Of a stretch of 64,000 nt of DNA, positions 1,731 to 26,045 are shown piece by piece. Origin of the DNA: Impatiens glandulifera. Taxonomy: Eukaryota > Streptophyta > Magnoliopsida > Ericales > Balsaminaceae. Every line of letters begins with the position of its first letter. The first letter of the stretch is position 1. The stretch is from the NCBI RefSeq assembly GCF_907164915.1, contig NC_061867.1:2503676-2567675 (forward strand), read 5' to 3'. Below the pieces are notes generated by a model. It did no database searches. It saw only the letters and a list, made by a program, of their open reading frames with translations, and was not told the origin of the DNA. Both the position numbers and the translations under genes were made by a program.

Positions 1731-4654
1731 TAAGTTAATTTAGGTTTGTGATTGAAACAGAGGATTGATTAGAATTAGGAGAGAAGAATTCCATGGTCAT
1801 ATCATATGTAGTGTGGTGGAACATAAACACACATAAGTCACGGTCCTTAATTAATGTTTATCTTCACTTTTAGTCAAAGTGAACCTATATATTTGTCGGC
1901 CATCAATGATTAATGTTCCGCGTTGTTGAATAATAGAAGTATAGGATATTTTTAAACAAGTAAATATCCTCGTTTTAATACAATATGAATAGTTTTTAGG
2001 TGAGACATTGCTTAATTTGTTTGTTAAGATTATCCATATTATTTTTGTTGGAAAATGTTTTGAGAGTCAAATATTACATTCAAAATCTCGTTTCTTTATG
2101 ACTAGTTAATATGTTTGGTAAGTCTTATATGTCACGAGGAGGTTGAATTGACAACCCACTTATTTTGCATTGTCAATAGATGACTAGTATCTGAAGTCTT
2201 TTGTACAGTATTACTGAAATTTATTGGGTGATGTCCGAGTCTTTAGAAAGTTGCTAAAAAATTTGAATTGATGCGTTTGATATTACATACTACATATTTG
2301 GGTTATCATTCCAATTATATTTTGGTGGACTATCTGGTTTGAGAGAAATCGTCAAAACTTCAATGATCGTAGACGTCTGATGTTTATAATTTATAATGTT
2401 ATTATTACGTTTTTTTAGATTCGTTTCGGAAAATCGATGGAATCAACTGGAGAGTTAATTGTTTTTCTTGAAGGCATACAAGCTCAATAGCCTATTAGAT
2501 ATTTTGGTTGTATTATATATATATTTTTTTTCATATCAAGTTTTATGAATTTTATCATTTTTAATAAATTGACCATTTTAAAATAATAATAATAATAATA
2601 ATAATTTAACCGTACCTCAAGTGACAGAAGTTAGTATTTAATAACCAACATTTATGGGTTTTTGTAGAGACTTGTAAAGCACAAACTCATGCATTTATGG
2701 TCATAGGTTTGAGTCTTCATCCGGGTCCATTGGCAACTCTCAAGATTTTGTGATTCACAAGGAATTATTCATCGACGATCTTGTCCTCACACGCATAAAC
2801 AAAATGGGAAAGAGAAACACAAACACCGTCACATTACTGAAATTGGTTTAACGCTTCTCGCTCATGCCTATATGCCCTCATCATTTTGGGACGATGGTTT
2901 TGCTATGGCGGTCTATATAATAAATCGATTGCCAAATATAAAAAATATTTTTTTGGGTTTTCAAATTCGAAAACAAAAGTAAATATAAATGAATTGTATA
3001 TGAATAAAAAATATTTAAGATATCTTTATTTATTATTACTATTTATTTTTAAAGTTTGTATTGTCCTTCAAATGTTTAGAGATATTAACTCTCCAAAACA
3101 ATAATCTATATATATATAAAAAACACACTTTTTTTTTATAATTTTTTAAAGGGCGGTGTAGGTATAAAATAATCTTTGTTAATTTTTTTCTCTTTAGCTA
3201 GGTTACTAGATATTTTTCACTCAATTAACCTTATATATTCTTCGAATTCCTTCTCCAAGATATATTCCCTCTTTGTTAAATATATTTTAGTTTAATAAAT
3301 ATTTATAAAAAAATACCTCAATTAAAGAATTATATAAAAAAAAATTACAAATATACAAAATAACATTTGCACAATTCAAATAACTAAATGAAAAATTAGA
3401 TGCTAAATAGTATAAATTATTTGTATAAATTAAAATTGTAACAAAAAAAACTCAACAATTTTATAATTTTTGTAAAAGTGATTTCAAATAATAAAAAATT
3501 GTTTAAACTCAGTAACGATGGAGGATGAAACTAAGCAAATTGAACAAACAAATTATTAAATATTATGAGTGATGTAAAAATCATTATTATGTATGGATCG
3601 ATAAACAATGCCAAAATTTGTTTATAAGTGATATCTAATCATTTACCTATATAGTTAAAATTATAATAAGAAATTATAAAAATCATGTAAAGATAAATGA
3701 AAAGGAGCCTTCAAAATTATGAACGATACTAAATTGATGCAACATACCCATATTTCAATTTACTATGTTTTGTGTTTCGTTTTGTACCACCTTCACACAG
3801 AAATTGATCATTTTATAAAATGAGTTAAAAGTAAAAAAAAAAAAAATCAATATATTTTGTGAATGTGATACAAAGTGGAACACAAAATTTGGAAAAATAG
3901 ATTTGAACCTTAATATATCTAGGGCCACTTTTAATGGATTGAGGGCCACTTTTAATGGATTGAGAAATTGTTAAAGACCATCGAGAAAGAAACTAGACTT
4001 TTTGTGAGCTTTGAAAAATTTAGAAAAACATGATTTGAGGCAAAGAAAATGAAAAAAAAAATGTTTTTGAAGGAATCAAACATAGGATTTAATTGTTATT
4101 ATTTAAAAAAAGTTGTAAAATATACTAATTTGGTAAGCAATAATATTTGTATGGACTAGTACAGACTGTTTCTCACCACTTTCTTTTTGGCATCATCGAT
4201 CCATTAATTCAGAACGCACTTAAGAGGATCATGTAAAATTCATTCCTTGGCCGAATAGTAGATTCCCAATATTGAACATTATTTAATTAGTTTTGGTGAC
4301 TAATTACTTTAAGTTTTTCTGTTTGGACGTGTATGATCGGTTTTGTTTCGCACCCAACTATTCATCTTGACTAATGTATTTAATAAAATAAAATATGATA
4401 TTAATATAAATTAAGACTTTATTTAACTCAAATTCTTTTATTTTTTATTTGATTACTTGCACTAATTTTAGAGATGGCAAACTTTTTTCATGTAAGTTTT
4501 TTTTTTAATCTAACTTTTGATATGTTAAATTTTTATAATGGTAGGTATACTTATAATATTTAAACTAATATTCTTAAAAAAACAGATTACTTTCCAAACA
4601 TAAAAGATTGATATATATATATACTATGCCAACCCATTTTTCAAGGCAATTCAT
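1731..4654. repeat. AT-rich intergenic block, duplicated elsewhere in the window
   Basis: I see no gene here. Long stretches recur near 42660-45900 and 57300-58740, with shorter pieces at 38400-38560 and 48540-49260 and an inverted piece at 52020-52350. Shared landmarks include GATGACTAGTATCT (about 2180), TTTGTGATTCACAAGGAATTATTCATC split over about 2747, and CTCAATTAACCTTATATATTC (about 3220). It also holds an (ATA)n tract at about 2584-2605 and a 23-bp direct duplication at 3918-3963. The block moved together with the TLP gene to its left. Confidence 0.7.
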
Positions 4655-4815
4655 CTAATAAAATAAAGAAGATATTACTAGAGTTTTAAAGTATAAAATT
4701 ATCTAACCTAGTGGTTTATGATAAAAATTTAGTATTTTTAATTGGTCATGAGTTCTAATCTCTCAAAAATCTATTTTTCTATCAATTTTTTTTTGTAGCG
4801 CAAAGCTCGCTTAGA
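4655..4815 (+). repeat. SINE-like fragment related to the start of the 4.9-kb array unit
   Basis: The order TAATAAAATAAAGAA, TAACCTAGTGGTTTA, GTCATGAGTTCTAATCTCTC matches the start of each array unit (for example 15995-16140). TAACCTAGTGG resembles an RNA polymerase III A box and the GAGTTCTAATC piece a decayed B box, as in tRNA-derived SINEs. No clear tail or target duplication is visible, so the class is tentative. Confidence 0.4.
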
Positions 4816-5016: not shown

Positions 5017-5516
5017 NNNNNNNNNNNNNNNNNNNNNNNNNNNNNNNNNNNNNNNNNNNNNNNNNNNNNNNNNNNNNNNNNNNNNNNNNNNNNNNNNNNN
5101 NNNNNNNNNNNNNNNNNNNNNNNNNNNNNNNNNNNNNNNNNNNNNNNNNNNNNNNNNNNNNNNNNNNNNNNNNNNNNNNNNNNNNNNNNNNNNNNNNNNN
5201 NNNNNNNNNNNNNNNNNNNNNNNNNNNNNNNNNNNNNNNNNNNNNNNNNNNNNNNNNNNNNNNNNNNNNNNNNNNNNNNNNNNNNNNNNNNNNNNNNNNN
5301 NNNNNNNNNNNNNNNNNNNNNNNNNNNNNNNNNNNNNNNNNNNNNNNNNNNNNNNNNNNNNNNNNNNNNNNNNNNNNNNNNNNNNNNNNNNNNNNNNNNN
5401 NNNNNNNNNNNNNNNNNNNNNNNNNNNNNNNNNNNNNNNNNNNNNNNNNNNNNNNNNNNNNNNNNNNNNNNNNNNNNNNNNNNNNNNNNNNNNNNNNNNN
5501 NNNNNNNNNNNNNNNN
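5017..5516. other. Assembly gap of 500 N
   Basis: Exactly 500 unresolved bases, which suggests a placeholder of arbitrary size. The gap removes the 5' end of the Ulp1-like gene and probably the left end of the Mutator-like block. Confidence 0.99.
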
Positions 5517-5517
5517 A

Positions 5518-8500
5518 TTCGAGAACAGTGGAGGTCCTTCAACCTACCAAATGCCTGACAAAATTCTACAGAACACAGAAGGAGACAGTAACTTCAAGAT
5601 GGACTTCGTGGTGTTTGTTGTATCCAGTTTTTTGTGGACATCCCAAAATCCACAGTGCAGGTAAACCCAAAGAACCTAGCATTAATTCTGTGATCTCATT
5701 TAGAACTTCAATATCATTTTACATGGCTTGAGTCACTACTTTTTTATTTTCAGATTCAAAGTACTGAAATCCCTCCAGGATGTATCTAAAATCAAAGACT
5801 ACAACTGGTGCAAGTTCACGTTAGACGGGCTAGTCGACAGTGTTTATAAGTGGAAAGCAAAGAAGACATCCTATTTCCATGGACCATTAACCTTTCTTTT
5901 GGTGAGTGTAGAAATCTATTTGCTGGAGGTTGTCCATTCATAATTTTTTGATGACTTTGAACGTAACATATATTTGTTCATGCTAATGTATCAGTTGTGC
6001 TACTTGGACCGTGTGGTTGAGTTCAAGGTAAACAGTAAGATCTCAAGGAGTTTTCCTATTCTAGGATGCTGGGACGAGAAGAAGATGTACGAAAGGGTTG
6101 AGTATGAGGCTGCACAGGGGGGGTTTGGACATGGTAGGGTGGTTGCTCGCATAGCCATGCCGAATGAGCAACCACCGATGCAACAAAATGTGCAGCCAAC
6201 ACCACCACAAACTGGAGATGACCATCCAACTCAGCATGCTCCAATTACACAAAACCTGGCGTCATGTTTGAGGAAGGTTGCTGCCGCTGCCGAAGAATTG
6301 GCACAAGGGGCTAAATATCTGAATGAGATGCACCAGATAAACGCCATGGAACTTGTACAGTCTGCGTTTGAGCCCTTGGCCACGGTGCTAAACTCCAATG
6401 CAATCCTGAGGGAAGGCTTACAGCGGAGTCTGGACCAAAACAAAAAGCAGCAGCCCAGAGGAAGTGGCATTAACCCCCACACGGAAGCCACCACCCAAGC
6501 GAAAGGCAACACCCTTCCTACCAACAAACCCTGCCAACACCAATCCAACGGCCCCATCGAACAAGAACACATTCACCCCCTCCACCGAAACGAAGACAAA
6601 GCCAACCACCCACCAACGGCCCCATCCAACAAGAGCACACTTTCTCCCAACATCCAAAAAAAGATCAACGCAGACAACCAAGCCAAATCCAACACCCATC
6701 CTCTAAACACCCTAGACCACACACAACCCACCCTCACACCAACACCCCAATCCCACAAGAACCCCCTTCCACTCAAAACAGTTACCCAAACCCCAGCCCC
6801 ACCCCCTCCAATGGCACAAGCCAACGCCAACCCCCTTCCTCCAATCATAACCACACCCCCTCCAGTGGCACAAGCCAAAGCCAACCCCATTCCTCCACTC
6901 AAAACCACACCCCCTCCAATGGCACAAGCCAAGCCCAAAACAAACCCCATTCCTCCACTCAAAACCACACCCCCTCCAATGGCACAAGCCAAAGCCAACC
7001 CCATTCCTCCAATCATAACCACACCCCCTCCAATGGCACAAGCCAAGCCCAAAACAAACCCCATTCCTCCACTCAAAACCACACCCCATACATTGGCACA
7101 AGACAAGCCTAAAGCAAACCCCATTCCTCCACTTAAAACCACACCCCCTCCATTGGCACAAGACAAGCCCAAAGCAAACCCCATTCCTCCACTCAAAACC
7201 ACACCCCCTCCATTGGCACAAGACAAGCCTAAAGCAAACCCCATTCCTCCACTCAAAACCACAACCCCTCCATTGGCACAAGACAAGCCCAAAGCAAACC
7301 CCATTCCTCCACTCAAAACCACACCCCCTCCAATGGCACAAGACAAGCCCAAAGCAAACCCCATTCCTCCACTCAAAACCACAACCCCTCCAATGGCACA
7401 AGCCAAACCCAAAGCCAACCCAATTACTCCCAAAACAGAAACCAACACGAACCCCAGCACTACAACCACCCCAGCCTTGCCTCCTACCCTAATTATCCAA
7501 AAAAAAGAGGAAGCAGGACCTTCAAAGGCCTTAAATGTCCAAAGAAAAGCCCCACGAAATTTGAAAACTGATTGGTTAACCGATGTCATCAAAACCGAAA
7601 CCAACAAAAACTCCCCTTCTTTGGCGATAGTTAAAAAGGAACCTGAAGAATGCATCTCCAGTCTACCACAGCCACTTCAAACCGCCTCGTCATTGGAGAC
7701 AGTAAAGAATGAACCTGAAGAAGGCATCTCCAGTCTACTAACGCCATTTCACACCGCCTATTCTTTGGAGATAGTAAAGAATGAACCGGAAGAAGGCATC
7801 TCCAGTGTACTACCGCCACTTCAAACTGGCTCTTCTCGTCCAAACATGCGAACGACAGAATGGGTTAAAGCATTGGAATTGCCTACAGCTTTGAAAACAC
7901 CACAATTCAATAAAATGTTTAGGGATGACAAGAAACTAACAAACTTTCAGAAGATTTTTGTGGGTTTCGTATTTGCTGGAGGACTTGATCCAAGGTAATG
8001 TTTGCTGCAAATGCTTTTTTCCATCATAAAAAATAGGAATTGCACACCATCTTGAAAAATGTTTTGCTGTTTTCATGCAGTGAAATGTTATTTATTGCGG
8101 AACACCTATGTCTACACGTGACGCGCGGGGACATGCTCACAATGGCTAATGAAACCTGGGTAGACAGTATGATTATTGATGTTTGGTCATACATTTTGCA
8201 CAACCTTTGTAGGAAAAATGTCAAATCTCGTTACAAGAAGATTTTCTACACAACCGTGCTCACCGTAAGTTGTACTAGCACTGTTATTTATCAATTATGT
8301 TATTCTTGTGAGACTAAAGGACTGCTGTAAACAGATTTTTTTCGTGAAGGTGGGATAACTACGCGAGAAAAATTCAATGACAGGTTCTGTCTAGAAGGTC
8401 GTGCTTTCCAAATTTCAAAAATGGACCTCTGGGAAGTGGACCTCGTAAGTACATCTCTGGCTGTCATACCTTATAATATCATTTACCACTCAGTTCAAAT

Positions 8501-9080
8501 CTAATCTTTTCTAATTCTATCCACAGTTGTTTTTCCCAATCATTGATGACAGACATTTCTACCTTGTTTGCTATAACTTCATACAAAGGCAATTTCAAGT
8601 AATTGATAACCGGGAGTCACCTATGCAATCGCCCTTCGAAAGAAGATATAAGAATGCACAAATCTTGGTATGACACTACAATTAAAATTTAAAACAGTTC
8701 AATTTTGGAATTCTAGTAGCACTAAAATACATTACATAATGTTGTTTGTAATGATGTATCAGGATGACTACATTCAACAATATATGAACGACGTAGACCC
8801 CGTTCTTGCTAAAAAGTATGGCGGTTTGGAAAAGATATGTCTGAAATTGCCATGGCAGGATTCAAAGAATTACACTGACTGCGGCATTTTTTGCATGAGA
8901 CACATGGAGACGTATGAAGGTGAGGTGAAGGGGTGGAAAACTGGCTTTGGAGTTAAAAGAAATGTAAGGAACCAAATAAGGACATTGAGGATGGAATACT
9001 GTTGGCGTGTCATTGGCTCGGAGCTCAACAAGGCCAGGAGCGAGGTCTACAATTCCTGCCGTAAATGGATAAGTCAATGA
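5518..9080 (+). CDS. Ulp1-like (C48) cysteine protease family gene of plant MULE type, 5' truncated by gap
   Basis: Proposed exons: 5518-5660, 5754-5901, 5995-7994, 8081-8264, 8335-8444, 8527-8667, 8763-9080, all with GT/AG borders; about 1010 residues remain. The N-terminal part (FKMDFVVFVVSSFL, VLKSLQDVSKIKDYNW, LCYLDRVVEF) is the conserved region found upstream of Ulp1 domains in plant transposon-linked proteins. The C-terminal part is the protease: His in DDRHFYLVCYN (8554), Asp in FQVIDN (8605), Gln in LPWQD (8856) and Cys in YTDCGIFCMRH (8880). Ulp1/SENP enzymes cleave SUMO from precursors or conjugates. The large third exon adds a proline-rich repeat (6790-7437) and three 24-residue repeats (7618-7833). 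In-frame joining works at every junction except exon 5, which is 110 nt: one base short in a T run. That could be a frameshift or a sequence error. Convergent with the transposase gene. Confidence 0.8.
6790..7437 (+). repeat. Coding minisatellite, 54/60-bp units, proline-rich
   Basis: About eleven head-to-tail units inside the third exon of the Ulp1-like gene encode variants of TTPPPMAQAKPKANPIPPLK (20 residues) or an 18-residue form lacking PK. Unit variants alternate (MAQAK, LAQDK), suggesting growth by unequal exchange. The frame is kept throughout. Confidence 0.93.
7618..7833 (+). repeat. Three 72-bp coding repeats with SUMO-acceptor-like VKxEPEE motif
   Basis: Three exact-length 24-residue units each begin SL-x-x-V-K-[KN]-E-P-E-E-[CG]-I-S-S. 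The cores VKKE (7630), VKNE (7702) and VKNE (7774) fit the SUMO acceptor consensus (hydrophobic-Lys-x-Glu) with acidic residues after it. A fourth match, IKTE, lies just upstream at 7588. Confidence 0.9.
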
Positions 9081-10110
9081 ATTAGGAACTGTATACATAA
9101 TGTGTAATTAAATTTTACAAAGAATTTTAGTTCACATGAGTACAATAATGTACTCATAGACAGATGGGGTAATTAAACTATTCCTATAATTGTAATGATT
9201 TATTGTTACAATAAAGAATATGTTGTGTAATTTCAATTCTAAAAAATTGTTACTTCACATCCTCACACTTATGAACGTGTATACATGAAGTGTGTTTTTT
9301 ATGAAATTTGATTTTCAAATACTTGTTCAATTATGTGTTAAATGAATAAATTAAGTGAAATAAACATGAGCCGCATAAATATTCGCTTCAAACACCTTCT
9401 CTTCATAAAATATGTATGTGAAGCCTCTAATTTCATGAAAGAAATATGAAGAGAATAAATATTCGCCTCTAATACATACTTTCGATGAAGCGAATACATA
9501 TTCGCCTCACGTTACTGATAATGTAAAGACACCATCTCATCCATGAGAAGCGGGATGACTTGTCATGTCACTGCACTTACCACGACATGTAAATACCAGT
9601 TTCAACATAAAGATCAATTTCATCAGACAAAGATGGTTAGGTTCAAGCGAAAACATCTTCGCCTCAGTATTATGTTTCATTTTCTCAATTTGCAACTAAA
9701 AGGATACTTAATATTAGTTGACTTGGGGCGAATAAATATTCGATTCATATAGGTGTTTGTAATTTTTTAGAAATGAATTAGTGTGGTCATTCATTTGGTA
9801 TTTCATAAAACTTCGCATGCATACATTCGACCTTATTGTTTGTTTCAAATCCAACGTACATACAATACTATATACATATCAGATTTCACATGAAACTGGA
9901 ATTCGATAGTTGAGATGACAAAAGAACAGTGAACGGAGTATTGGCGTCCATGCTGAAACTTTCGTCCCATTGTTGAGGAGTTGAGAACTGAGGAGTTGTC
10001 GTTGGCATTGCACTTGATGGCTGGAAAGGAAGATCAAATTTATTTAAAAGTATGTTATTATATGAATATTAATAACACAATTATTAGTAAAGAAGGGTAA
10101 GTCAGCAATT
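9081..10110. other. Spacer between convergent Ulp1-like and transposase genes with short palindromes
   Basis: No gene seen. The spacer contains several copies of a palindromic word of the type GAAGCGAATacATATTCGCCTC, at about 9369-9391, 9448-9469, 9487-9508, 9644-9665 and 9725-9747. The same words recur upstream of the transposase and BRCT genes but not elsewhere in the window that I could see. Confidence 0.6.
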
Positions 10111-12491
10111 TCATACCGGAATATGTGATTCACTAGTTATTCTTGTTGATTTTCGTTTTCTTGAGTTCTTCTCCAGTCCACCTTTCCTTCTCTTACCCGA
10201 CTTTGTTGGCTTCTTAGTTTTCATTCCTTTTGCTTGCACAGGGGCACCCTCGGCCGAACGTGATAAACCGGTTGGTGGAGTTTGCATATTTAAACTCTCC
10301 TGCAATTTTTTATCCACAAACGTGCACTGGCTCAGCATGATTTCTTTGACATGATTGTAAGTGTCATCTCTTTCGGCTGCCTTGTTAAATAAATGCATGG
10401 ACAACCCACACAAATCTCTGTATCTTATGTTATGAAGCTCACTCGGATCAACATTAGTACTGTCCACGATTGGATCAGTTCCAAATATTCCATCTTTGGC
10501 TGTTCTTGTCCACCTCTTCAATATCAACGCCGGAGGAATCTTCAACACGTCAATCGTTGTGAAAATCTTTAGGATGTGAGCACACAAAATCCCTCCAAAT
10601 TCAAATTTACAGCAGCTACACTCGATATTCTTATCGTCATTCTTATGAACTATAACTGTATGAGAGCATCTCCTAGTGTGGGGTGTTACCTTGTATTTTC
10701 TGTGTGTGTCAACATCCTCTAACATTTCAACACCACAATCATGCGACATAAACCATTGTTGTTCAAAGCACTTAAAGACCTCTGGGGTGTAAACTTTGCA
10801 GGCATCCTTTAAGATCAAAACTGGATAGTTAAGACTTGGTTGGCTGGTAATTGATTTGAAATCAGCCTTCAACACATCATATCTTCTTTCATCAAGTAGT
10901 CTTTCAAAGTGTTTGAAAAATTCTAAAAACTTGTGTTTGTAGGAGCAGTACCTTTTCAACATACTGTTCATACTCTCACTTCTCTGTGTTGTAGTCATAT
11001 CAGCACAAAATATTTGTCGTCCATACACTAATGCCCACTTTCGCCTGATGCTAAACATGCGTTTCAACCAATCGTTGTTTTCAAGCCCGTAGTTTGTCAA
11101 CATTTGATTCCAAGCTTCAACAAACTCTATCTCTTCTTCAAAATCATATATGCACGAAGAAAAATCCTTAGAAAAATCTCTGAAATTATGGAACACCGAG
11201 CTAAGATGTATGGCTGCATTTTGAAATATGTGCCAAATACAGAGACGATGATTTGTTTCGGGCCATTGAGACGCCAAGGCCTTAGCCATGGCCGCGTCTT
11301 GATCTGTAAGAATGGTTTTTGGTTTTTTCCCATGCATAGCTTTGGTGAAAGTCTCAAACAACCAATCAAAAGTCATCGCAGTTTCATCGTATAATAGAGC
11401 TGCTCCAAAAAGAATTGATTGTTTGTGATGATTGACACCTACAAAAAGCGCAACTGGACGACCTTCATTATTCTTCTTGTATGTGGTGTCAAAACTGACC
11501 ACGTCTCCGAAGTATGAATAATCGGACCGCATGTTGGAATCACACCAAAAAATATTCGTTATCAAATCGTCCGCATCAAGTTGAAAAGCATTATAAAAAC
11601 CAGGATCATTGGATTGTTTGTTCTGCAAATACTCTAATACACCCCCTGTTTCCCCAAAATTACACTCTCTGGTTCTTTTCGTGCGCATGTAATTTTTGTA
11701 ATCCTCAGGAAGAAAACCTAGATTCTCCCTTCCACCGATTTGTTTAGACATTAGAGCATGTGATGACTTAGGAGGAATTCCCACGTTAGTGGCCATCTCG
11801 ATATGTAAGCCTGCAACTGCAGAAATATTCCTATGGCATCTATACAGGTGAGTTTTCTTTGGACTTGCAAGAGGATGACTATGATCACTAATAAAATTTA
11901 CCACTTGGAACTTTCCATTGTCTGCACGCTTTATCCTCAATTTCGCTTCACAACAGAACCGAGTCACAGAACGTCTACGTTTCACATAGACATCACGTTT
12001 GTCCTTTCCCCGTTCACCCTGTGCACTACAACAAAAAACTCTATCCAGTATTTTACCCTCCTTGTCTACATGTTTTGAACTGCGCCTTATACCAAATCCT
12101 ATTAGTTTAGCGTATGCTAAGTAGAATACGTAGCCTTCTTCTTCACTCTCAAATTCTCTACCTAAAAGTGGAATTAAGTTGGATTCGATGTCCTCCAAAG
12201 GTTGGCCGTTTCCATCGAAATTCAATTGACGACGACAAGTAGCAGATTCGCTGTTCAGTTTGAACAAGTGGAAAATAAAGGTTTGTAGATTATTGGAAAA
12301 TGAAAACAATATAAGCGAAGAATGCTTCACTTCAACAGTATGAAGATTGTAATATTAGGCGAATATAGTTTCGCTTCATAAGATATTATCTCATAATATA
12401 GTAGTGAAGAGATCTTCGCTTACATGTGCACTACAAAAATTGGAGAAGTTAAAAAATGTTACCTTAAATCAATAATATCATTCTCGTCCAT
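10111..12491 (-). CDS. FAR1/FHY3-type MULE transposase (or domesticated relative), two exons
   Basis: Proposed exons on the minus strand: 12491-12463 (MDENDIIDL, ending in a GT donor) and 12250-10111 (after a CTGAACAG acceptor). They join in frame to give 722 residues. A continuous reading from 12330 is possible but would begin inside the intron. Domains: an N-terminal FAR1 zinc-finger DNA-binding region (FCC...RFCCEAK...DHSHP, about residues 50-140); a MULE DDE core with Asp in VVSFDTTY (about 264), Asp in ILTDQDAAM (about 326) and Glu in QRSESMN (about 435); a SWIM finger CSCC...CAH (about 554-568); and a basic Lys/Arg-rich tail like a nuclear signal. All key residues are present and there is no internal stop. 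Placement beside an Ulp1-like gene and terminal-type tandem repeats favours a Mutator-like transposon over a resident FRS transcription factor. Confidence 0.85.
12310..12422. repeat. Cluster of GCGAA/TTCGC palindromes in the transposase intron
   Basis: AAGCGAAGAATGCTTC (about 12313), AGGCGAATATAGTTTCGCTT (about 12358) and GTGAAGAGATCTTCGCTTAC (about 12402) are three short near-palindromes of the family seen at 9.4-9.7 kb and 14.4-15.5 kb. All but the first base or so of the cluster falls in the predicted intron. Confidence 0.6.
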
Positions 12492-13193
12492 ATCATTCTC
12501 GCTGATACGTATTCCTTCCTGATAATCAAAAAGAACATGACCTTTTCATGTCGATGATTCAAAAAACATAGAAAAGGTTGGGAAGAAAAGTAAAGGAGGT
12601 ATAAATGACATTCAAAAACAAACCATTTTATAATTTAGGAAGACGGATTGATATTATAATGAAGTCTCCGGCGAAGGAGAGGTCGATGGTAGACAATGTA
12701 GTATAACTCCGGCGAAGAAATGGTCGTACAGTAGAGAGAGAGAAGAGTACAAAGTTGTCTAGCTTAGCAGCATGGCTTGCTGCATGCAGCATTTAATGAA
12801 AAGGTGGCAGGTGTTAGGTGGCGGTGAGGTGACTTGTTAAAAAAATTATTTCATTTTAATAATTAAATGACAAAAATTATTATGAAATTAAATTAATAAA
12901 TCAATCAATCAATCAGTCTGCGAAGATTTCTTCACATTATTGTTTTGACAATTGTTTTACAAATATTATTTTGACAGTAGTTTTAAAAAATATTAATTAT
13001 TTATCAAATTTATACTTCAATTTATACAGTATTTGTTAATGTTTCAAGATTTAGTTAAATATAAGGCTGATGTTTAAAAAAAAAAACAATTCGAAGAACA
13101 AAAAACATAATTCTGAAATCAAATATGACATTGAATTTTCAAGAATGCAAAATATTCAAATATTAAGTAACAAATTAAACCAACACATGTCTA
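12492..13193. other. Spacer upstream of the transposase gene
   Basis: No gene seen. The left part (12600-12760) is GC-richer, contains an AGAGAGAGA tract and is a plausible 5' leader for the minus-strand transposase. From about 12840 the sequence is AT-rich with a short ATCA tetranucleotide run at 12898-12914. Confidence 0.5.
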
Positions 13194-14402
13194 TTACAAA
13201 AACAAAGGCTGCAAATCACAAGCAGCAATGGATTCTAGCAAGCTTGTGTGAGGAACACCAAACACATCCAAATATGTCTTCAGAGGATTCTCTGCCTCAA
13301 ATACCCAAACAAGTTCATTAACATCGTGCCTAGACTTGTCGTATACAACTATAGTTTTGTCGTCCTCGGGCTCGACAAATGGATTCTCCATTTCTTTAGT
13401 TGTACCTCCTCCAGCAATTACAAACCCCATAAGATCAAGTTTGTAAGCCGGGATGAATTCCCCTGCAAATATGAAGGTGTAACTGTCGAAGAGTTTGGGC
13501 AGCTGAAAGAAAATACAATACATTATTAGTAATGATGGACAATTGAATATCATATGGAGGATGGAATAAGACAAAACTTACATTGTTCAAATAACGCATT
13601 CTGCCAGCTCTTGGACCGCCCAAAGTCCCATGATTATCTCGCTGCACCTCGTATGGTTCCTCGTCCACGTAACAGTTAAATCTGATTGATGATTTTATCC
13701 CTGTATAAAAGCAATAGGTGTTTTTAGTTTCATATATGTGAAAATGAATATTGAGTTAACAGTAAAGGGTTAAGAATAACAGAGTCTCACAATCAATGGT
13801 AAGGACCCAACTCCCGTTCAATATGCCCTTCAATACTTTGATAGTGCGACCGCATCCACCATTAGAATCGGTGGATGCTATGACGTGGGTAACATCGTCT
13901 CGCCACCTCATTGACACCGTGGCACCACATGTGTTAGCATATTGTTGCATCAAGTGCTGTTTAAGAACAATCATAAATATTTCAGTTAAACAGGATGAAA
14001 ACTTAAACAATATGGAAAAAAAAGGGAGAAATGTAACGAAGAGTACTATCTCTTCACTTCTTAATTGATTTGGGCATAAAATCCAATCTTTGCCAAAGTT
14101 TTGGACGGATGCTGAGGCAGCCTGCACGTGCATGAAAAAAACATTGATTTACAGTCAAGGTAACATTTTGAGAGTAGGGTTTCCAAAAGATTAAAGAGAC
14201 AACAACATCACATAACAGAATCTAGTGTAGTAGTTCCATAATCCTAAATATTAAAAGCTACTAGTCAGGAATACGTACCATTGAGGAGTCGTGAAGATGT
14301 GGATTCAGGTTCGGTCGACGGGGAGCCGGTTACGAATCGCCGTGAAAAGGAGGCAGGAAGAGAGAGAGATGAATCGGGCGGAAATGATAATAAAATAATC
14401 AT
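13194..14402 (-). CDS. Tandem-BRCT protein resembling the BRCA1/BARD1 C terminus, five exons
   Basis: Proposed exons on the minus strand: 14402-14279, 14111-14047, 13956-13791, 13700-13582, 13502-13194. All introns are GT/AG, the phases match at every junction, and the total is 783 nt (260 residues plus stop). After about 41 Ser/Pro-rich residues comes a first BRCT with RWRDDVTHVIASTDSNGG, RTIKVLKGILNGSWVLTIDW and VDEEPYEV. The second BRCT starts LPKLFDSYTFIFAGEFIPAYK and ends LLESIAACDLQPLF. This order and wording match the C terminus of plant BRCA1/BARD1 proteins, which bind phosphopeptides in DNA repair. The RING domain and all middle parts of BRCA1/BARD1 are absent. It may be a gene fragment captured by the Mutator-like block and provided with its own first exon; the open frame argues against old decay. 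Confidence 0.72.
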
Positions 14403-14429
14403 ATTAGGGGGTATATATATTCATGTAAC

Positions 14430-14620
14430 CGGGGCGAACATGTCTTCTTTCGAAAAGCGACTATTCATTCCATGTAACATGACACAGGGACCAGGGGCGA
14501 ATAAGTGTTCTCTCGAGAAGCGACTATTCAATCCATTTTACATGGAACATGGTCTAGGCGAACAAATGTTCTTTTCCAGCGAAAAAATTGAAATAAAGAA
14601 AAAAAAGTAATGAATTAATT
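14430..14620. repeat. Palindrome-rich 5' flank of the BRCT gene
   Basis: Two variants of GGGGCGAA(C/T)A...GAAAAGCGACTATTCA(T/A)TCCAT lie in tandem (about 14433 and 14496), followed by GGCGAACAAATGTTC (about 14558). The words ACATG and CATGTAA also repeat. This continues into the 275-bp tandem repeats. Confidence 0.6.
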
Positions 14621-15500
14621 GAAGCAAATATATCTTCGCTCCAGAGAGTCTCGAGGCAAAAAAAATGAATTAAAAAAAAAATAGGAAAAAAAACTAGCCG
14701 GTAATTGAGGCGAAGATTTGTTCGGTTGCTGCATGTCATCTTCAATTAATTGAATTAATATTTAAAAAACGGAAATATAAAATCCATGTAATTTTGGTCT
14801 TCACATAAACGGGTAAGTGTCTTTACATGGTATTCAAGCGGTCTTTACATGTGTGGGTAGGGGGGATTTACATGGGGTTTTTATTAAAATTAATTGAAGC
14901 AAAGAGATCTTCGCTCCAGAGAGTCTCGAGGCAAAAAAAATGAAATAAAAAAAAAATAGGAAAAAAAAAATAGCCGGTAATTGAGGCGAAGATTTGTTCG
15001 GTTGCTGCATGTCATCTTCAATTAATTGTATTTATATTTAATAAACGGAAATATAAAATCCATGTAATTTTCGTCTTCACATAAACGGGTAAGTGTCTTT
15101 ACATGGTATTCAAGCGGTCTTTACATGTGTGGGTAGGGGGGATTTACATGGGGTTTTTATTAAAATTAATTGAAGCAAAGAGATCTTCGCTCCAGAGAGT
15201 CTCGAGGCAAAAAATATGAAATAAAAAAAAAATAGGAAAAAAAAAATCCGGTAATTGAGGCGAAGATTTGTTCGGTTGCTGCATGTCATCTTCAATTAAT
15301 TGTATTTATATTTAATAAACGGAAATATAAAATCCATGTAATTTTGGTCTTCACATAAACGGGTAAGTGTCTTTACATGGTAGTCAAGCGGTCTTTACAT
15401 GTGTGGGTAGGGGGGTTTTACATGGGGTTTTTATTAAAATTAATTGAAGCAAATATATCTTCGCTCCAGAGAGTCTAGAGGCAAAAAAAAATTAAATAAA
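14621..15500. repeat. Tandem repeat, about 275 bp, three full units plus a partial
   Basis: Units begin GAAGCAAA-TATATCTTCGCTCC or GAAGCAAAGAGATCTTCGCTCC at about 14621, 14896, 15172 and 15446 (periods 275, 276, 274). Each unit carries CCGGTAATTGAGGCGAAG, TTGTTCGGTTGCTGCATG and three TTTACATG words. This kind of direct repeat is common in subterminal regions of plant Mutator-like elements, though here that role is inferred from position only. Confidence 0.9.
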
Positions 15501-15966
15501 AAAAGTAAATAAAAAATCCAAGAAAATAAAAGATTGAATTACTTGAAGCGAATATTATATCGCTGCCTGTGTTATTTAATAAATTAAATTAATATTTAAT
15601 AAACTTAAAGAAAATCTGACTGTCAATTCGGTCTTTACATGGAAGTGTAAGTGTATTCTCACGAACGGCAGGCGTTCTTCTCATGGGTGGGTATGCGGGG
15701 TTTACATGAGGGTCATGGCAACGGGCGTGTAGATCAGAGCGAAGATATCTTATCTGGGTATTATCTGAATATTATATTATTTCCGGGCGTTAACGGGCGC
15801 TTCCGTTAACGGCGTCTTGTGTGAACCCGGGCCTAAACCCGGATTCCGGATTCTCCCTCCCTCCGTCTCCTGCCCAGATTGATTTATTATTAAATTAATA
15901 ATGCTGCAATCTGATTGGTGCGCCACAGGGGAACACGGCAATCGGTAGCAGAAGATCTGAACTGCT
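15501..15966. other. GC-richer right end of the Mutator-like block
   Basis: The first part continues the GAAGCGAA and TTTACATG motif series. From about 15780 composition shifts to GC-rich, with CGTTAACGGGCG and CCGTTAACGGCG at about 15787 and 15803 and CCCGGGCCTAAACCCGG at about 15827. It ends where homology to the 4.9-kb array begins. It is probably the element's terminal region, but no matching left terminus is visible. Confidence 0.4.
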
Positions 15967-16203
15967 GGCAAGACTCCGGAGTAGAAATTTCCTAGGTCAG
16001 TCCATTAAATAAAATAAAGAACAAATTTCTAGTATTTTATAATTATCAAATGGTTTAACCTAGTGGTTTAGGGTGAAAATTTAAGTTTATACTCTAGTCA
16101 TGAGTTTTAACCTTACCAAAAATTAATTTTTTATCATTTTTTTTAGCGATCAAAATTCACGTTTTTTTTAGGTTGGGCAGCTCAAAAGTCGGGGCCGGCT
16201 CTG

Positions 16204-16790
16204 CTCACAATCATCTGTAGAAGCCGAATATCGTAGTTTTGCGAATATGATATGTGAGATCAAATGAATATGTTATCTTCTAAATGACTTGAGAGTCAAA
16301 ACAACATTTTCAATTAGACTTTGGTGTGACAATCAAGTGAGTGGATCTTCGAAAATACAGTTTTTCATGAAAGAACGAAACAAATCGAAATCAATTGTGA
16401 AACAAATTTAAAATTGGAATTATTTTGTTGCAACATATTCCGTTCAAACATTTTTTGAAAAGCATTAGCTGTCATCCATTTTCAGAATTAAAGAACAAAC
16501 TTAATTTTTAAAATATTCAGAGGAGGGATATAAAACAATATGTTAAGCTTGTTTTATTTATTAAATTATGTTATATTTTAATACATTATGTTCTTCATAT
16601 ATTTAAACGTAAACAAAACAATCATTTAAGGATTGTTTAGTAATTATTATATTTTATTATTAAAAGGTAAAAGATTTGATAATCCCCAAAGTTGCTTTTT
16701 ATTTTTTCTATCGGTAACCTTAGCTCAATATTCTCTCATCTTGTTGATTCACCGCCATTGTCACAAATTTCCAGGTTTCTTTCATTTAAT
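16204..16790 (+). mobile_element. Copia RNase H 3' end, polypurine tract and partial LTR (array unit 1)
   Basis: The + strand reads SSVEAEYRSFANMICEIK and then a stop where a Trp is expected, followed by further RNase H wording (LWCDNQVSG, FMKERNKS) with more lesions. This is the C-terminal RNase H of a Copia polyprotein. GAGGAGGGA at about 16520 is the polypurine tract and TGTTAAGCTTG at 16541 is the likely LTR start. The LTR is cut short beside the TLP tail. The same piece is repeated in units 2 to 4 from about 21095, 26046 and 30986. Confidence 0.7.
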
Positions 16791-16829
16791 CAAACAAAAC
16801 AGTTAATAAAATGTATTTAACATAAATTG

Positions 16830-17120
16830 TTATTGTTTTGACAAGAAAATATAAAACTGTTTGTTACAACTCTTGAATGCAGGAGCAACAACTGTTATTT
16901 TAGCCTGAGGAATAATAATAGTAGAATTACTTTGGCATATTGATACTGTTGTTGTTGTGTTCCTTGTTATTGTATTTGTTAACACCGAACCAGTTGGGCA
17001 GAAAACAACCTTGTAGTCAGTTCCTCCCGGGCAAGTAATAATAGTAGAATTGTATATTAATAAAATTATATTTAAATTTGTATTTATATGATTTAAATTT
17101 CTAGAACTGTTTGGGATCAT
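16830..17120 (-). pseudogene. TLP C-terminal fragment in array unit 1
   Basis: Only the last part of a thaumatin-like gene is present, from [16 protein letters not shown] to the stop after [14 protein letters not shown], including the two-cysteine C-terminal extension. It is closest to the gene at 47349 (shared [18 protein letters not shown]). Upstream the frame stays open into unrelated AT-rich sequence, giving a 96-residue ORF starting MIPNSSRN. There is no signal peptide, so a functional product is unlikely. Confidence 0.9.
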
Positions 17121-17269
17121 AAATTACTCTCTGCTAACTAACTAACGAAAGTTGAGAAAAGACTACATAAAAGAAAATTGGCAAGTCCAATTTGGAGAAA
17201 AGACTATTAAAAAAAATTAAGTGGGAATATTGAGATACACAATATCGAACAAAACCTTGGGAGTACAAT

Positions 17270-17477
17270 TAGGGGCGGAGCCAGGATTTCAAACTTATCC
17301 GGGCTAATTTTTTATTAAAAAAATCTACCCGGACTAGTTATGTCGCCAACACCTTTTACCGACGGGAAATAACCAATAACGACGGTAATGTACTGTCGTT
17401 ATTTATTAAATACATATAGTCTATTTGGGGCTACCCGGGTTCCAGCCCGGGCCGACTTGTATTTGGCTCCGCCCCTG
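17270..17477. mobile_element. hAT-type MITE (array unit 1), 8-bp target duplication
   Basis: About 208 bp bounded by inverted ends (C/T)AGGGGCGGAGCCA and TGGCTCCGCCCCTG. AGTACAAT is duplicated on both sides (17262-17269 and 17478-17485). An 8-bp duplication with CAGGGG ends fits the hAT superfamily. It has no coding capacity. Internally it holds CCCGGGTTCCAGCCCGGG and GACGG/CCGTC inverted words. Confidence 0.9.
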
Positions 17478-17759
17478 AGTACAATATAACTTTTATTTTT
17501 TAAATATCTTTTATTAATTTTAGGTTTAATAGTTTATTTGTCAGAATTTATGAAAACAAATCAAATTATTGAGAAATAAAAAACAAGCAAATTTTTCATA
17601 GATAAAAAGTCAAACCTCAAGTGTGTGGCAAGTGTGTGTCACAAAGAGTTGGAACTCAAAATTCAATTTGTCAAATTGTGCCTTGTTTGACCAAAGAAAG
17701 TACCTTTAAAGTTTGAAATAAAAAATAAAGCATTTGTAAACTAAAAGAAGAAAATGACT

Positions 17760-18579
17760 CCAAACAGGCCCAAATTTCTAGAATAATAAGGGCTTGTTTT
17801 TTTAGACTAAATTAAATTTTCATTTTTTTCACTGATAGGACGAGATAAGAAACGACTATAATACCCTTATATTTATTTTTGTAGAGTTTTCAAAAAATTC
17901 TACAAATAATATTAATAAATTTTAATATTACTTATAATAATATAAAAGTTTAATTATTTAAATAGTTTTTTATATTGAATATTTTGTTTTTTTATTAAAA
18001 ATATTTAAATTAATATTTATAAAATATTTTTTAATTTAATAAAAAAAGTTTAAAACAATTAAATAATATAATAAGATTTTCAATACATAAATAATTAAAA
18101 AAATAATTAAAAAATATTAATAAATTTTAGTTAAAAATTTAGTTAATAAATAATTAAAATAATATTTATTTAAATTTCATTAATTTATATAATAATTGAT
18201 TATTATTTTTTAAGTTTTTAATTCAAAATAATTAAAATATATATTTTTAAAATATCTTTGATTTATATTTAATATTTATTTATTTTATATAAAAATTTGA
18301 AAATATTTAAAAATTATTTATATAATTTTATTAAGATTTAATAATTTAAAAAACAATTTAACTCATAAATTATATATATATATATATTAAAACGTTATTT
18401 AAATTATTTAAATTTTATTTAAAATAAGTTAATAAATAATATTGGATTTAGAAATAATAATAAAAGTATTTATGTTTTATATTTTTAATAAATATAAATT
18501 TTAACACCGATATATAATTTATTTAAAAAAATAAAATCTTATTTATAAAATTATATTATTCTAAATTTTAATTAATATT

Positions 18580-18611
<32 letters not shown>

Positions 18612-20735
18612 TCTTCAGTTAAATTTTATATAATGTTTTTAATATAGTTAATATAATTTTTAAAATAAAATATTTTTATAATTATAAAAATATATAAAAT
18701 AATAATTTCATCTTTTCAAAAAAAAAATAAGAATTTGTTAATTTTATATAAAATTAATAATTTTATTTTATCAGTTTTTTTAAATCTAAATAAATCCTTT
18801 TATTTATTTAAATAAATAAACTAAAATAAATTAATAAAATCTAATAAATATATTAGTTAAAGATAAAAAACTATTATATTTATTTATATTTTAAATATAT
18901 ATTTTTAAACTAAATTTTAAATTACTTAATTAATTAATAATATTGTTTTAATTTAGTAAATTGATATTATAAATATATTAAATAAATATACATACCATAA
19001 ATATTTATTTATATTTTTAAAATCTTGTTATCTAAATCATATTATTTTATTTTTCTATTCTTTTTTTTCTTTTTAACAATTTAATTAAAATTATTAGAAA
19101 TATGTTCATAAATTTAATTATAATAATAATTATTGTAAAAAATAATTGTTTTAAAATTTATTATAAAATAATATACAAAAAATTATTAGAAATATGTTCA
19201 TAAATTTAATTATAATCATAATTATTTTAAAAATAATTGTTGTAAAATTTATTATAAAATAATATACTTATTGTTTAAAAATAAAATAATAAAATTTAAA
19301 TATTTTTTTATTGTTTAAAAATAAAATAATTTAAAATTTAGTTTAAAAAATAAATTTAAAAATTATAAAATAATATTTTTAATTATTTATTGAATTTGTT
19401 TGAAATGTGTAGAATGACTTCTAAAAACATATATTTTTTATTATTAATTGTAAAAATATAAATTGTAATATTAAAATTGATCATAAAATAAGAATTAGAA
19501 AATTTCAATATAAATTAATCATATTATTCTTAACATACAGATTATTTATAATTTATAAAGAAAGAGGAGGAACTAGAGATTTAAAAAATGATTCTTTCAT
19601 GAAAAATCAAAATTTATTAATTTTTATATAAACATAATAATTTTTTTATATTTTTTAAAAATAAATAATTTTATTTATTTAAATAAAATAATAAAAACTA
19701 ATAAATATATTAGTTAAAGATTAAAAATATTATATTTACGAATATTTTAAATATAATTTTTTATAACTAAATTTTAAATTATATTAAGAATAATTATTAA
19801 AATTTCTATATTATTTTAAAATAATTTTTTTAACAATAATTTTTTAAATATCTATGATTATAACTAAATTTATTAACTTCTTTCTAATAATTTTTAATTA
19901 AATTGATAAAAAGAAAAGGAAATGGAAAAATAAATTAAATGATTTAACTAATAAAAAATTTAAAATATTTCATTAATAATAATAATAAAAATTCTATAAT
20001 AGAATTAAAATTTATTTATTGTTTATGTACTTTTTATTAATTATTTATAACAATTTGATTATTTTATATGTTAAAAATATATTTATTTATATTAAATATT
20101 TTTGAACATCTTAATTACAGTATGCAATTATTATAATAATTATTATTATCATTATAATAATTATTGTAATTATTATAATTATTATAATAATAATAATTTG
20201 TTTTATTTTAATTATTATTAATATTATTTTGAAAAAGGTATACATATATATATTTTACTATTATTATAATTTTCTTAAAGTTATAAAATGCAAAAAAAAT
20301 ATATATATATATATGGAAAAAATATAGTTACTTTATAAATCAGTCCTTACTAACTAAAAAATTATTTTTCACCTTTTCCATTTATCAAAATTTAAGAGTT
20401 ATTGACGAGAGTGCACTAGTTTGTAAAAAAGACATTATTATTATAATTTTAACAAAATTTAGAATAATTAAAAAAAATGTAAAAACATTATTAATATTAT
20501 TATTGTTATTAAATTTTTTATTATTATAATTATTATTATTATTTAAATATATATATATATATATTTATTATTATTATTATTATAATTATTATTATAATTA
20601 TAATTATTAAAATTATTAAACTATTATTATATTATTATATTATTACTATAATAATAATAATAATTATTATTATTAATTTGATAATTATTATATTTATTAT
20701 TTTTATTGTTATAATTATTATAATTATTATAATAT
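17760..20735. repeat. Extreme AT-rich block, array unit 1
   Basis: Nearly 3 kb is almost wholly A and T, with (TA)n tracts (about 18370, 18590, 20310, 20550), long ATT/AAT runs able to fold on themselves (20130-20200, 20500-20720) and an internal near-duplicate (19098 and 19180, TATTAGAAATATGTTCATAA). No gene is seen. Equivalent blocks are 22690-25695 and 27640-30635. Confidence 0.9.
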
Positions 20736-20854
20736 ATGACTTTTTGTCCAGATTCAATGTTCAGATTCAAGACGATCCTATTAGATTACTATTAGATTAG
20801 GTAAATCAAGAAAAAACAAAAGTCTCAACATCAGAAATTGCCTAAGGTAAGCCT
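20736..20854 (+). other. Exon-like scrap at unit 1 / unit 2 junction
   Basis: After an ATG at 20728 region the frame reads DFLSRFNVQIQDD, then the sequence duplicates CTATTAGATTA, breaking the frame. In units 2 and 3 the frame continues PIRLGKSRNKQKS...QKLPK and meets AAG|GTAAGC, a good splice-donor match. I do not recognise the protein. Confidence 0.3.
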
Positions 20855-21094
20855 GGCAAGACCCCAGACTAGAGCAGAAATTTACTAGGACAGTCCATTA
20901 AATAAAATAAAAAACAAATTTCTAGTATTTTATAATTATCAAATGGTTTAACCTAGTGGTTATGGTGAAAAATTAAGTTTATACTCTAGTCATGAGTTTT
21001 AACCTTACCAAAAGTTAATTTTTTATCATTTTTTTTAACGATCAAAATTCACGTTTTTTTAGGTTGGGCAGCTCAAAAGTCGGGGCCGGCTCTG

Positions 21095-21680
21095 CTCACA
21101 ATCATCTGTAGAAGCCGAATATCGTAGTTTTGCGAATACGATATGTGAGATCAAATGAATATGTTATCTTCTAAATGACTTGAGAGTCAAAACAACATTT
21201 TCAATTAGACTTTGATGTGACAATCAAGTGTGTGGATCTTCGAAAATACAGTTTTTCATGAAAGAACGAAACAAATCGAAATCAATTGTGAAACAAATTT
21301 AAAATTGGAATTATTTTGTTGCAACATATTCCGTTCAAACATTTTTTGAAAAGTATTAACTGTCATCCATTTTCAGAATTAAAGAACAAACTTAATTTTT
21401 AAAATATTCAGAGGAGGGATATAAAACAATATGTTAAGCTTGTTTTATTTATTAAATTATGTTATATTTTAATACATTATGTTCTTCATATATTTAAACG
21501 TAAACAAAACAATCATTTAAGGATTGTTTTGTAATTATTATATTTTATTATTAAAAGGTAAAAGATTTGATAATCCCCAAAGTTGCTTTTTATTTTTTCT
21601 ATCGGTAACCTTAGCTCAATATTCTCTCATCTCGTTGATTCACCGCCATTGTCACAAATTTCCAGGTTTCTTTCATTCAA
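21095..21680 (+). mobile_element. Copia RNase H/LTR scrap (array unit 2)
   Basis: Same fragment as in unit 1 with a few base changes (for example AATACGATATGTG where unit 1 has AATATGATATGTG). It keeps the in-frame stop after SFANT/MICEIK-type wording, the GAGGAGGGA tract and the TGTTAAGC start. Confidence 0.7.
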
Positions 21681-21720
21681 TCAAACAAAACAGTTAATAA
21701 AATGTATTTAACATAAATTG

Positions 21721-22011
21721 TTATTGTTTTGACAAGGAAATATAAAACTGTTTGTTACAACTCTTGAATGCAGGAGCAACAACTGTTATTTTAGCCTGAG
21801 GAATAATAATAGTAGAATTACTTTGGCATATTGATACTGTTGTTGTTGTGTTCCTTGTTATTGTATTTGTTAACACCGAACCAGTTGGGCAGAAAACAAC
21901 CTTGTAGTCAGTTCCTCCCGGGCAAGTAATAATAGTAGAATTGTATATTAATAAAATTATATTTAAATTTGTATTTATATGATTTAAATTTCTAGGACTG
22001 TTTGGGATCAT
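21721..22011 (-). pseudogene. TLP C-terminal fragment in array unit 2
   Basis: 96-residue open frame with the TLP tail [16 protein letters not shown] to FYISLSKQ. It differs from unit 1 by Pro for Ser near the start and Ser for Phe near the end. No signal peptide or TLP core. Confidence 0.9.
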
Positions 22012-22157
22012 AAATTACTCTCTGCTAACTAACGAAAGTTGGAGAAAAGACTACATAAAAGAAAATTGGCAAGTCCAATTTGGAGAAAAGACTATTAAAA
22101 AAAATTAAGTGGGAATATTGAGATACACAATATCGAACAAAACCTTGGGAGTACAAT

Positions 22158-22364
22158 CAGGGGCGGAGCCAGGATTTCAAACTTATCCGGGCTAATTTTT
22201 TATTCAAAAAATCTACCGGGCTAGTTATGTCGCCAACACCTTTTAGCGACGGGAAATAACCAATAACGACGGTAATGTACTGTCGTTATTGATTAAATAC
22301 ATATAGTCTATTTGGGGCTACCCGGGTTCCAGCCCGGGCCGGCTTGTATTTGGCTCCGCCCCTA
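22158..22364. mobile_element. hAT-type MITE (array unit 2)
   Basis: CAGGGGCGGAGCC at the left and GGCTCCGCCCCTA at the right (last base changed), with AGTACAAT at both flanks (22150-22157, 22365-22372). Same insertion as in unit 1, copied with the unit. Confidence 0.9.
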
Positions 22365-23468: not shown

Positions 23469-23508
<40 letters not shown>

Positions 23509-25839: not shown

Positions 25840-26045
25840 GGCAGTCCATTAAATAAAATAAAGAACAAATTTCTAGTATTTTATAATTATCAAATGGTTT
25901 AACCTAGTGGTTTAGGGTGAAAAATTAAGTTTATACTCTAGTCATGAGTTTTAACCTTACCAAAAGTTAATTTTTTATCATTTTTTTTAACGATCAAAAT
26001 TCACGTTTTTTTTAGGTTGGGCAGCTCAAAAGTCGGGGCCGGCTC

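What the first reader, a model, noticed from the sequence alone, without database searches (positions are those of the whole stretch)
5518..15966. Mutator-like block combining transposase, SUMO-protease-like gene and tandem-BRCT gene
Seen: within 10 kb lie an Ulp1-like protease gene (+), a FAR1-type MULE transposase with complete DDE triad and SWIM finger (-), and a BRCA1/BARD1-like tandem-BRCT gene (-), with shared palindromes in all their spacers and tandem repeats at the right end. Known: some plant MULEs carry Ulp1-like genes and many capture host gene pieces. Inference: the three genes may be one mobile unit, with SUMO processing and a repair-type phosphopeptide reader added to the transposase. 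I know of no described MULE with a BRCT gene.
Basis: partly seen in the sequence, partly recalled or inferred. Interest (0 to 1): 0.8.

Follow-up and report, generated by a model that had tools for sequence, protein, structure and literature searches.

The report
Plant jumping gene with repair-type domain
A stretch of plant DNA holds an intact jumping-gene enzyme, a SUMO-protease-like gene and a gene resembling the end of the repair protein BARD1, tied together by a shared set of palindromes, so it is probably one transposon that captured a repair gene, but its left end and other copies could not be seen.

Summary
The block contains an open FAR1/MULE/SWIM transposase (-), a Ulp1-type (C48) gene (+), and an open five-exon, 223-codon gene (-) resembling only the tandem-BRCT end of BARD1. 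A palindrome, GCGAAN6TTCGC (up to 2 mismatches), occurs 23 times in the block, never in coding sequence, and 6 times in the rest of the window. This argues for one element.

Jittery-like MULEs with ULP genes are known (melon, grapevine). The BRCT gene is the new part; my paper searches found no MULE with one. It is divergent (41-45% identity to five plant relatives) yet open, so probably maintained. The layout resembles Arabidopsis VANDAL/VANC anti-silencing elements: three genes, tandem peptides in one protein, motif-rich noncoding DNA. I infer self-protection against silencing, with the BRCT protein added for chromatin or break-site tethering.

Mobility is unproven. The left end lies in an assembly gap, no terminal inverted repeat or target duplication was found, the spacer between transposase and BRCT is the weakest link, the Ulp1 gene has one out-of-frame junction, and the genome search did not complete (17 tries).

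The parts
5017..5516 (.). assembly gap (500 N); probably hides the Ulp1 5' exons and the left end of the element
5518..9080 (+). Ulp1/C48-type gene: exons 5518-5660 (partial), 5754-5901, 5995-7994, 8081-8264, 8335-8444, 8527-8667, 8763-9080; exons 4 and 5 of this list do not join in frame
   Evidence: splice borders; PF02902; relatives P0126/P0127
6797..7436 (+). tandem peptide repeat (60-bp unit, about 10 copies) in the middle of the Ulp1-type protein; a second, 72-bp repeat lies at 7617-7835
9081..10110 (.). spacer S1 between the 3' ends of the Ulp1 and transposase genes; 5 palindromes
10111..12491 (-). FAR1-MULE-SWIM transposase: exon 1 12491-12463, exon 2 12250-10111; intron 1 holds 3 palindromes
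12493..13193 (.). spacer S2 between transposase start and BRCT 3' end; 3 palindromes, two of them with 2 mismatches
13194..14281 (-). tandem-BRCT gene, exons 14281-14279, 14121-14047, 13956-13791, 13700-13582, 13502-13194; 223 aa
14282..15964 (.). spacer S3, BRCT upstream region and probable right end; 12 palindromes, partly in the 276-bp tandem repeat
14613..15504 (.). 276-bp tandem repeat, 3.2 copies, carrying palindromes
15964..15965 (.). probable right boundary: homology to the 4.9-kb array units starts at 15965

Best explanation
The block is one large autonomous-type plant MULE with a FAR1-type (Jittery-like by domain order) transposase and a Ulp1-type gene in the opposite orientation. 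It has captured the C-terminal tandem BRCT of a BARD1/BRCA1-type host gene and kept it as a third gene. Shown: the three genes, their splice structures, and one palindrome family concentrated in the block's noncoding DNA. Inferred: the element moves as a unit. Inferred: the Ulp1-type protein, with its repetitive middle, binds the GCGAA palindromes and keeps the element unmethylated and expressed, as VANC/KIU proteins do for VANDAL elements, or else the transposase binds them. Most speculative: the BRCT protein tethers the element or its transposase to damage-marked or replicating chromatin, or competes with host BARD1/BRCA1 at the breaks left by excision.
For: Palindrome GCGAAN6TTCGC: 23 sites in the block, 0 of 23 in about 5893 coding bases. 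Of the 5-base half-sites with at least two G/C, it is the only one forming 6 or more such palindromes (up to 1 mismatch) in the four segments: 17, against 1 in 53 kb of flank. At up to 2 mismatches each of the four segments exceeds all 300 Markov shuffles. S1 and S3 share more 9-mers (with at least 3 G/C) than any of 83 overlapping control windows: 19 of 762, rate 0.0249 against a maximum of 0.0230; the transposase intron and S3 share 8 of 762, rate 0.0105 against 0.0103. CATGTAAAGAC (up to 1 mismatch) occurs 10 times in the window, 2 in S1 and 7 in S3 in opposite orientation, mostly through the tandem repeat; no chance control was run. The BRCT frame is open at 41-45% identity to plant relatives; neutral simulation leaves few open frames: 10% at 0.85 identity, 4% at 0.75, 0 of 400 at 0.67, 0.3% at 0.60. 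ULP genes in Jittery-like MULEs, and reversed in KI-MULEs, are known. VANC elements have motif arrays in introns and spacers as tandem repeats, and tandem peptides in VANC.
Against: No terminal inverted repeat between left flank and right end (95 of 100 shuffles score as high). The left end is in the gap. No second copy was seen. S2, between transposase and BRCT, shares no 9-mer with S1, and its rate with S3 (0.0105) is inside the control range (maximum 0.0123); at up to 1 mismatch it has one palindrome, reached in 2 of 300 shuffles. A 26-28 bp AT-rich inverted match, 12879-12906 with 15877-15902, brackets the BRCT gene alone (0 of 100 shuffles). No palindrome lies in the visible Ulp1 introns or the BRCT introns, nor left of 9371. 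The palindrome is symmetric, unlike the same-orientation VANC21 motif. DUF1985 is only a sub-threshold hit and DUF287 is not found in the visible part. The Ulp1 gene has a frame break.
Confidence: 0.55

Rival explanations
1. Nested or neighbouring insertions: a standard ULP-MULE, plus a separate non-autonomous element of the same family (Pack-MULE-like) that carries the BARD1 piece and landed beside it.
For: A 26-28 bp inverted match flanks the BRCT gene alone (score 35, 0 of 100 shuffles, largest 32). S2 shares little with the other spacers. Same-family elements would share the palindrome.
Against: The inverted match is AT-rich and was one of five comparisons; a better one (score 38, 0 of 100) links S1 (9338-9391) to the right end (15543-15599) and includes a palindrome. 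Palindromes continue through the transposase intron and S2. The BRCT gene is complete with its own start and stop, whereas captured fragments are usually pseudogenes (PMC13317346, passages).
Confidence: 0.22
2. The BRCT gene is an ordinary truncated host BARD1/BRCA1 duplicate that happens to lie beside a MULE, whose end lies in or before S2. The repeats in its promoter come from a fragment of a related MULE.
For: BARD1-type similarity. The gene is long diverged and open, as a host gene would be. S2 is the weakest palindrome segment.
Against: 12 palindromes of the MULE's own type lie on its upstream side and 3 on its other side, against 6 matches in the rest of the window. No close short relative was found among annotated proteins of 0.55-1.75 times its length (5 hits from 127 candidates, 41-45% identical).
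Confidence: 0.15
3. The palindromes are transposase-binding (subterminal-type) sites rather than targets of an anti-silencing protein. This concerns the motif's role and can hold together with a single unit.
For: The site is a symmetric 5-6-5 palindrome, as expected for a dimeric binder, and lies on both sides of the transposase gene.
Against: Sites are spread through internal spacers and an intron rather than seen only near an end. This layout matches VANC targets (passages of PMC5735166).
Confidence: 0.4

Closest known systems
Jittery-like and MuDR-like MULEs with ULP genes (grapevine, melon, rice; Arabidopsis KAONASHI)
   Same: MULE transposase with a ULP gene downstream; reverse orientation in KI-MULEs and both orientations elsewhere (PMC2528002 section 10); FAR1 at the N-terminus and SWIM at the C-terminus as in the Jittery plant group (PMC6446971 passages)
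   Different: extra complete tandem-BRCT gene; dense block-specific palindromes; ends not seen here; no transposase tree was made
VANDAL elements with VANC / KIU anti-silencing proteins
   Same: three genes, noncoding motif arrays in an intron, spacers and a tandem repeat, tandem peptides in the middle of the ULP-type protein
   Different: FAR1-type transposase; symmetric palindrome; DUF1985 sub-threshold and no DUF287 in the visible part; anti-silencing untested
Plant and human BARD1/BRCA1 tandem BRCT
   Same: aligned along both repeats; THVI, RT-K, ILNG-W and EEPYEV stretches mostly shared with plant relatives
   Different: no RING or PHD part, 223 aa only, Ser-Gly of the human BARD1 pocket replaced by Asn-Gln, BRCT2 shortened and without its Trp
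Pack-MULEs
   Same: a MULE-associated captured host gene piece with introns
   Different: sits beside an open transposase gene, has a complete ORF, and is diverged but open

Membership tests
FAR1-type (Jittery-like) MULE | FAR1, MULE and SWIM domains in order | tested here: met
   each above its Pfam cut-off
FAR1-type (Jittery-like) MULE | groups with Jittery in a transposase tree | not tested
   no tree was made; the Jittery label rests on domain order only (passages)
FAR1-type (Jittery-like) MULE | intact catalytic acidic triad | tested here: inconclusive
   two Asp invariant in 8 of 8; third acidic residue in an E-rich but variable stretch
FAR1-type (Jittery-like) MULE | terminal inverted repeats and 8-11 bp target duplication | tested here: inconclusive
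   none detected, but the left end is in the gap
FAR1-type (Jittery-like) MULE | several dispersed copies | not tested
   The genome search did not complete (17 calls, listed in Tried and rejected)
ULP-MULE (KI type) | C48 protease domain with His-Asp-Cys | tested here: met
   PF02902 21.4 bits, cut-off 20.7; residues by reading the translation
ULP-MULE (KI type) | ULP gene downstream of and opposite to the transposase | tested here: met
VANDAL/VANC | DUF1985 and DUF287 in the anti-silencing protein | tested here: inconclusive
   DUF1985 14.7 bits against 35.1, profile positions 85-139 of 141; no DUF287 in the visible part; the 5' end is in the gap
VANDAL/VANC | element-specific motif dense in noncoding regions, in tandem repeats | tested here: met
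   within this window only
VANDAL/VANC | motifs arrayed in one orientation (VANC21) | tested here: not met
   the motif is a palindrome
VANDAL/VANC | sequence-specific loss of DNA methylation | not testable with these tools
   needs bisulfite sequencing
BARD1/BRCA1 tandem BRCT | first BRCT repeat | tested here: met
   PF00533 39.1 bits, cut-off 21.3, residues 21-87
BARD1/BRCA1 tandem BRCT | second BRCT repeat | tested here: inconclusive
   aligned with BARD1 to residue 170 and with plant relatives, but no Pfam hit above cut-off and no PDB hit for its exon; model confident only in residues 1-58; PDB fold matches led by BARD1 and Brc1 BRCTs at E about 0.05, none at 0.001 or better
BARD1/BRCA1 tandem BRCT | phosphate pocket Ser/Thr/Lys | tested here: inconclusive
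   Thr and Lys kept; Ser replaced by Asn (roles recalled); plant BCP4 uses Gln/Thr/Asn contacts (PMC11014961 passages)
BARD1/BRCA1 orthologue | RING or PHD part before the BRCTs | tested here: not met
   gene model starts at the BRCT; stop codon in frame upstream of the ATG

The most novel reading that the evidence does not exclude
A plant MULE lineage has assembled a three-part self-protection kit: a transposase, a ULP/VANC-like protein that recognises the element's own GCGAA palindromes and blocks silencing, and a captured BARD1-type tandem BRCT that couples transposition to the host's damage-marked or replicating chromatin. As far as my searches show, it would be the first transposon described with its own BRCT reader.
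Probability: 0.2. Interest if true: 0.85.

Novelty: new variant of a known kind. Interest (0 to 1): 0.52.

Why it matters
A transposon that carries a host repair-chromatin reader would show how an element can steer break repair or choose chromatin. The palindromes give a ready binding assay: which of the three proteins binds GCGAAN6TTCGC? It would also extend sequence-specific anti-silencing beyond VANDAL elements to FAR1-type MULEs.

Tried and rejected
Terminal inverted repeats of the whole unit: left flank against right end, best match AT-rich, 95 of 100 shuffles as good; Ulp1 5' part against right end, 59 of 100; S1 against S2, 5 of 100. An empty site by comparison with segments at 43-64 kb: left-flank homology stops at 4621 (to 45888) and right-flank homology resumes only at 16788, so no clean empty site. 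Target duplication: CTGGCAAGAC occurs exactly at 15965 and at the start of the three later array units, with two 1-mismatch copies at 55754 and 56756, but not left of the block. The boundary at 15965 could be the start of the tandem array rather than the element's end. A first palindrome pattern with the wrong spacing gave 0 hits. Rfam: no match in the window at gathering thresholds. An exact palindrome pattern in viral contigs: 0. BRCT2-exon structure: mean pLDDT 61.6, residues 59-102 under 50, Foldseek best E 0.045, so only weak support. The literature on BRCT with Mutator-like held 2 papers, of which I saw titles and abstract starts; neither is about MULE cargo by those.
Full report
What is there. 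The window is plant nuclear DNA by inference: a complete thaumatin-family gene lies at 912-1730 (PF00314, E 3.3e-62) and further similar segments follow. Between 5518 and about 15964 lie three genes. The transposase (10111-12330, minus strand) is a 739-codon open frame with FAR1, MULE and SWIM domains above the Pfam cut-offs. A first exon at 12491-12463 joined over a 212-bp GT-AG intron gives an N-terminus...SESATCRRQLNF, that resembles relatives such as P0011. The protein search gave 810 hits at E up to 0.001 among 7804 candidates, of which 120 were listed. The best is 61% identical in Zingiber; others listed are in Salvia, Impatiens, Coffea, Cannabis, Humulus and Prunus, and most named ones are called FAR1-related. 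Seven of the hits were aligned.

The Ulp1-type gene (plus strand, 5518-9080) reads through seven exons with canonical borders where visible. Its last part matches Peptidase_C48 just above the curated cut-off. Two database relatives, P0126 (Perilla, 32%) and P0127 (Orobanche, 27%), were the only hits among 286 candidates; by reading they have the same layout and the H...D...C residues, and only P0127 carries a precomputed PF02902. The middle is a proline-rich array of about ten 20-residue repeats, followed by three 24-residue repeats. The 5' end is in the assembly gap. Exons four and five do not join in frame at a T run, which may be decay or a sequence error.

The BRCT gene (minus strand, 14281-13194) has five exons, GT-AG at all four introns, and a complete 223-codon frame. 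It matches human BARD1 (E 1.5e-14) better than BRCA1 (best 1.5e-10). Its five database hits, from 127 candidates, are 41-45% identical in the alignment (44-47% in local matches). Those hits are 63-73% identical to each other over the core, while this protein is 49-54% identical to them, so its branch is long. In a substitution-only neutral simulation the frame stayed open in 10% of 400 runs at 0.85 identity to the start, 4% at 0.75, none at 0.67 and 0.3% at 0.60. The share of divergence on this branch is unknown and indels were not modelled, so maintenance by selection is likely rather than shown. Thr and Lys of the phosphate pocket are kept, and the Ser-Gly of human BARD1 is Asn-Gln (residue roles recalled; alignment); P0001 and P0002 have Ser there. 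The Trp of BRCT2 is Ser here, although it is present in the 4 of 5 relatives that cover the region. The exon with most of BRCT2 gave no Pfam family above cut-off and no PDB hit alone, and its model is confident only in its first 58 residues. Plant BCP4 reads phospho-H2A.X with Gln, Thr and Asn contacts (PMC11014961, passages), so the pocket change does not exclude phosphopeptide binding.

What joins them. The pattern GCGAAN6TTCGC at up to two mismatches occurs 29 times in the window against 6.7 expected, and 23 of the 29 lie between 9371 and 15754. The other 6 are at 22232, 27184 and 32124 (one site in three array units), 39336, 43849 and 47176. None of the 23 touches about 5893 coding bases. 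They fall in the Ulp1-transposase spacer (5), the transposase intron (3), the transposase-BRCT spacer (3) and the BRCT upstream region (12); the other visible introns hold none. Several of the 12 are copies made by a 276-bp tandem repeat, so they are not independent; 7 lie in 14282-14887 plus 15506-15964. Among half-sites with at least two G/C, no other one gives six or more such palindromes in these segments at up to one mismatch. The spacer between transposase and BRCT is the weakest link: two of its three sites have two mismatches, at one mismatch it has a single site that 2 of 300 shuffles reach, and its 9-mer sharing is no better than control windows. No palindrome is seen left of 9371, so the Ulp1 gene is joined only on its 3' side.

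Ends. Homology to a 4.9-kb tandem array begins exactly at 15965, so the right end is probably 15964. The same point could instead be the array's own start. No terminal inverted repeat or target duplication was found, and the left end is hidden by the gap. A short AT-rich inverted match brackets the BRCT gene alone and keeps the nested-insertion reading open.

Comparison with what is known. ULP genes are described in grapevine MULEs of MuDR-like and Jittery-like families, in melon (also Jittery-like) and in rice, with Arabidopsis KAONASHI as the reverse-orientation case (PMC2528002, section 10 read). That this transposase is Jittery-like rests on domain order (PMC6446971, passages); no tree was made. 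A 2026 review describes KIU-carrying VANDALs as demethylating their own family through noncoding motifs, with a VANC gene that has a ULP part (PMC13317346, passages). In Arabidopsis VANDAL21 the motifs lie in introns and spacers, often in tandem repeats, and VANC proteins often carry tandem peptides (PMC5735166, passages). The present block shows a similar layout but does not show DUF287 in its visible part and lacks the same-orientation feature, so it may work like these elements without being filed as one. For BRCT cargo, BRCT with Mutator-like gave 2 papers. Broader searches gave no relevant title among those listed (20 of 47, 12 of 12, 20 of 34). The main texts of three MULE or gene-capture papers contain the word zero times. 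Most subscription journals and Repbase were not searchable.

How it most likely works. Shown: gene content and motif distribution. Inferred: the transposase mobilises the unit; the Ulp1-type protein or the transposase binds the palindromes; binding by the Ulp1-type protein would oppose silencing; the BRCT protein links the element to repair or chromatin. The genome search that would settle unity and mobility did not answer in 17 attempts.

Noticed in passing
15965-32716: Tandem array of a 4.9-kb unit (starts 15965, 20853, 25804, 30745; last copy cut at 32716), copies about 97% identical; the three full copies each hold roughly 2 kb of DNA at only about 6-9% G+C, which is extremely AT-rich for plant nuclear DNA (judged from recall).
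   Followed up: partly
912-1730 and similar segments at 36839, 40962, 47291, 59028, 63687: A complete thaumatin-family gene (PF00314) with several similar gene or gene-fragment segments across the window by BLAST; the fragment ORF 16830-17120 gave no Pfam family and the others were not scanned.
   Followed up: partly
4638-4792 and 15988-16144: A direct repeat of about 155 bp, 76% identical, on both sides of the block; looks like a dispersed short element (SINE-like by eye, not tested) rather than a target duplication.
   Followed up: partly
9520, 9586, 14819-15631: A second word shared by spacers, CATGTAAAGAC, forward in S1 (2) and reverse in S3 (7), 9 of 10 window hits at up to 1 mismatch; no chance control was run.
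   Followed up: partly
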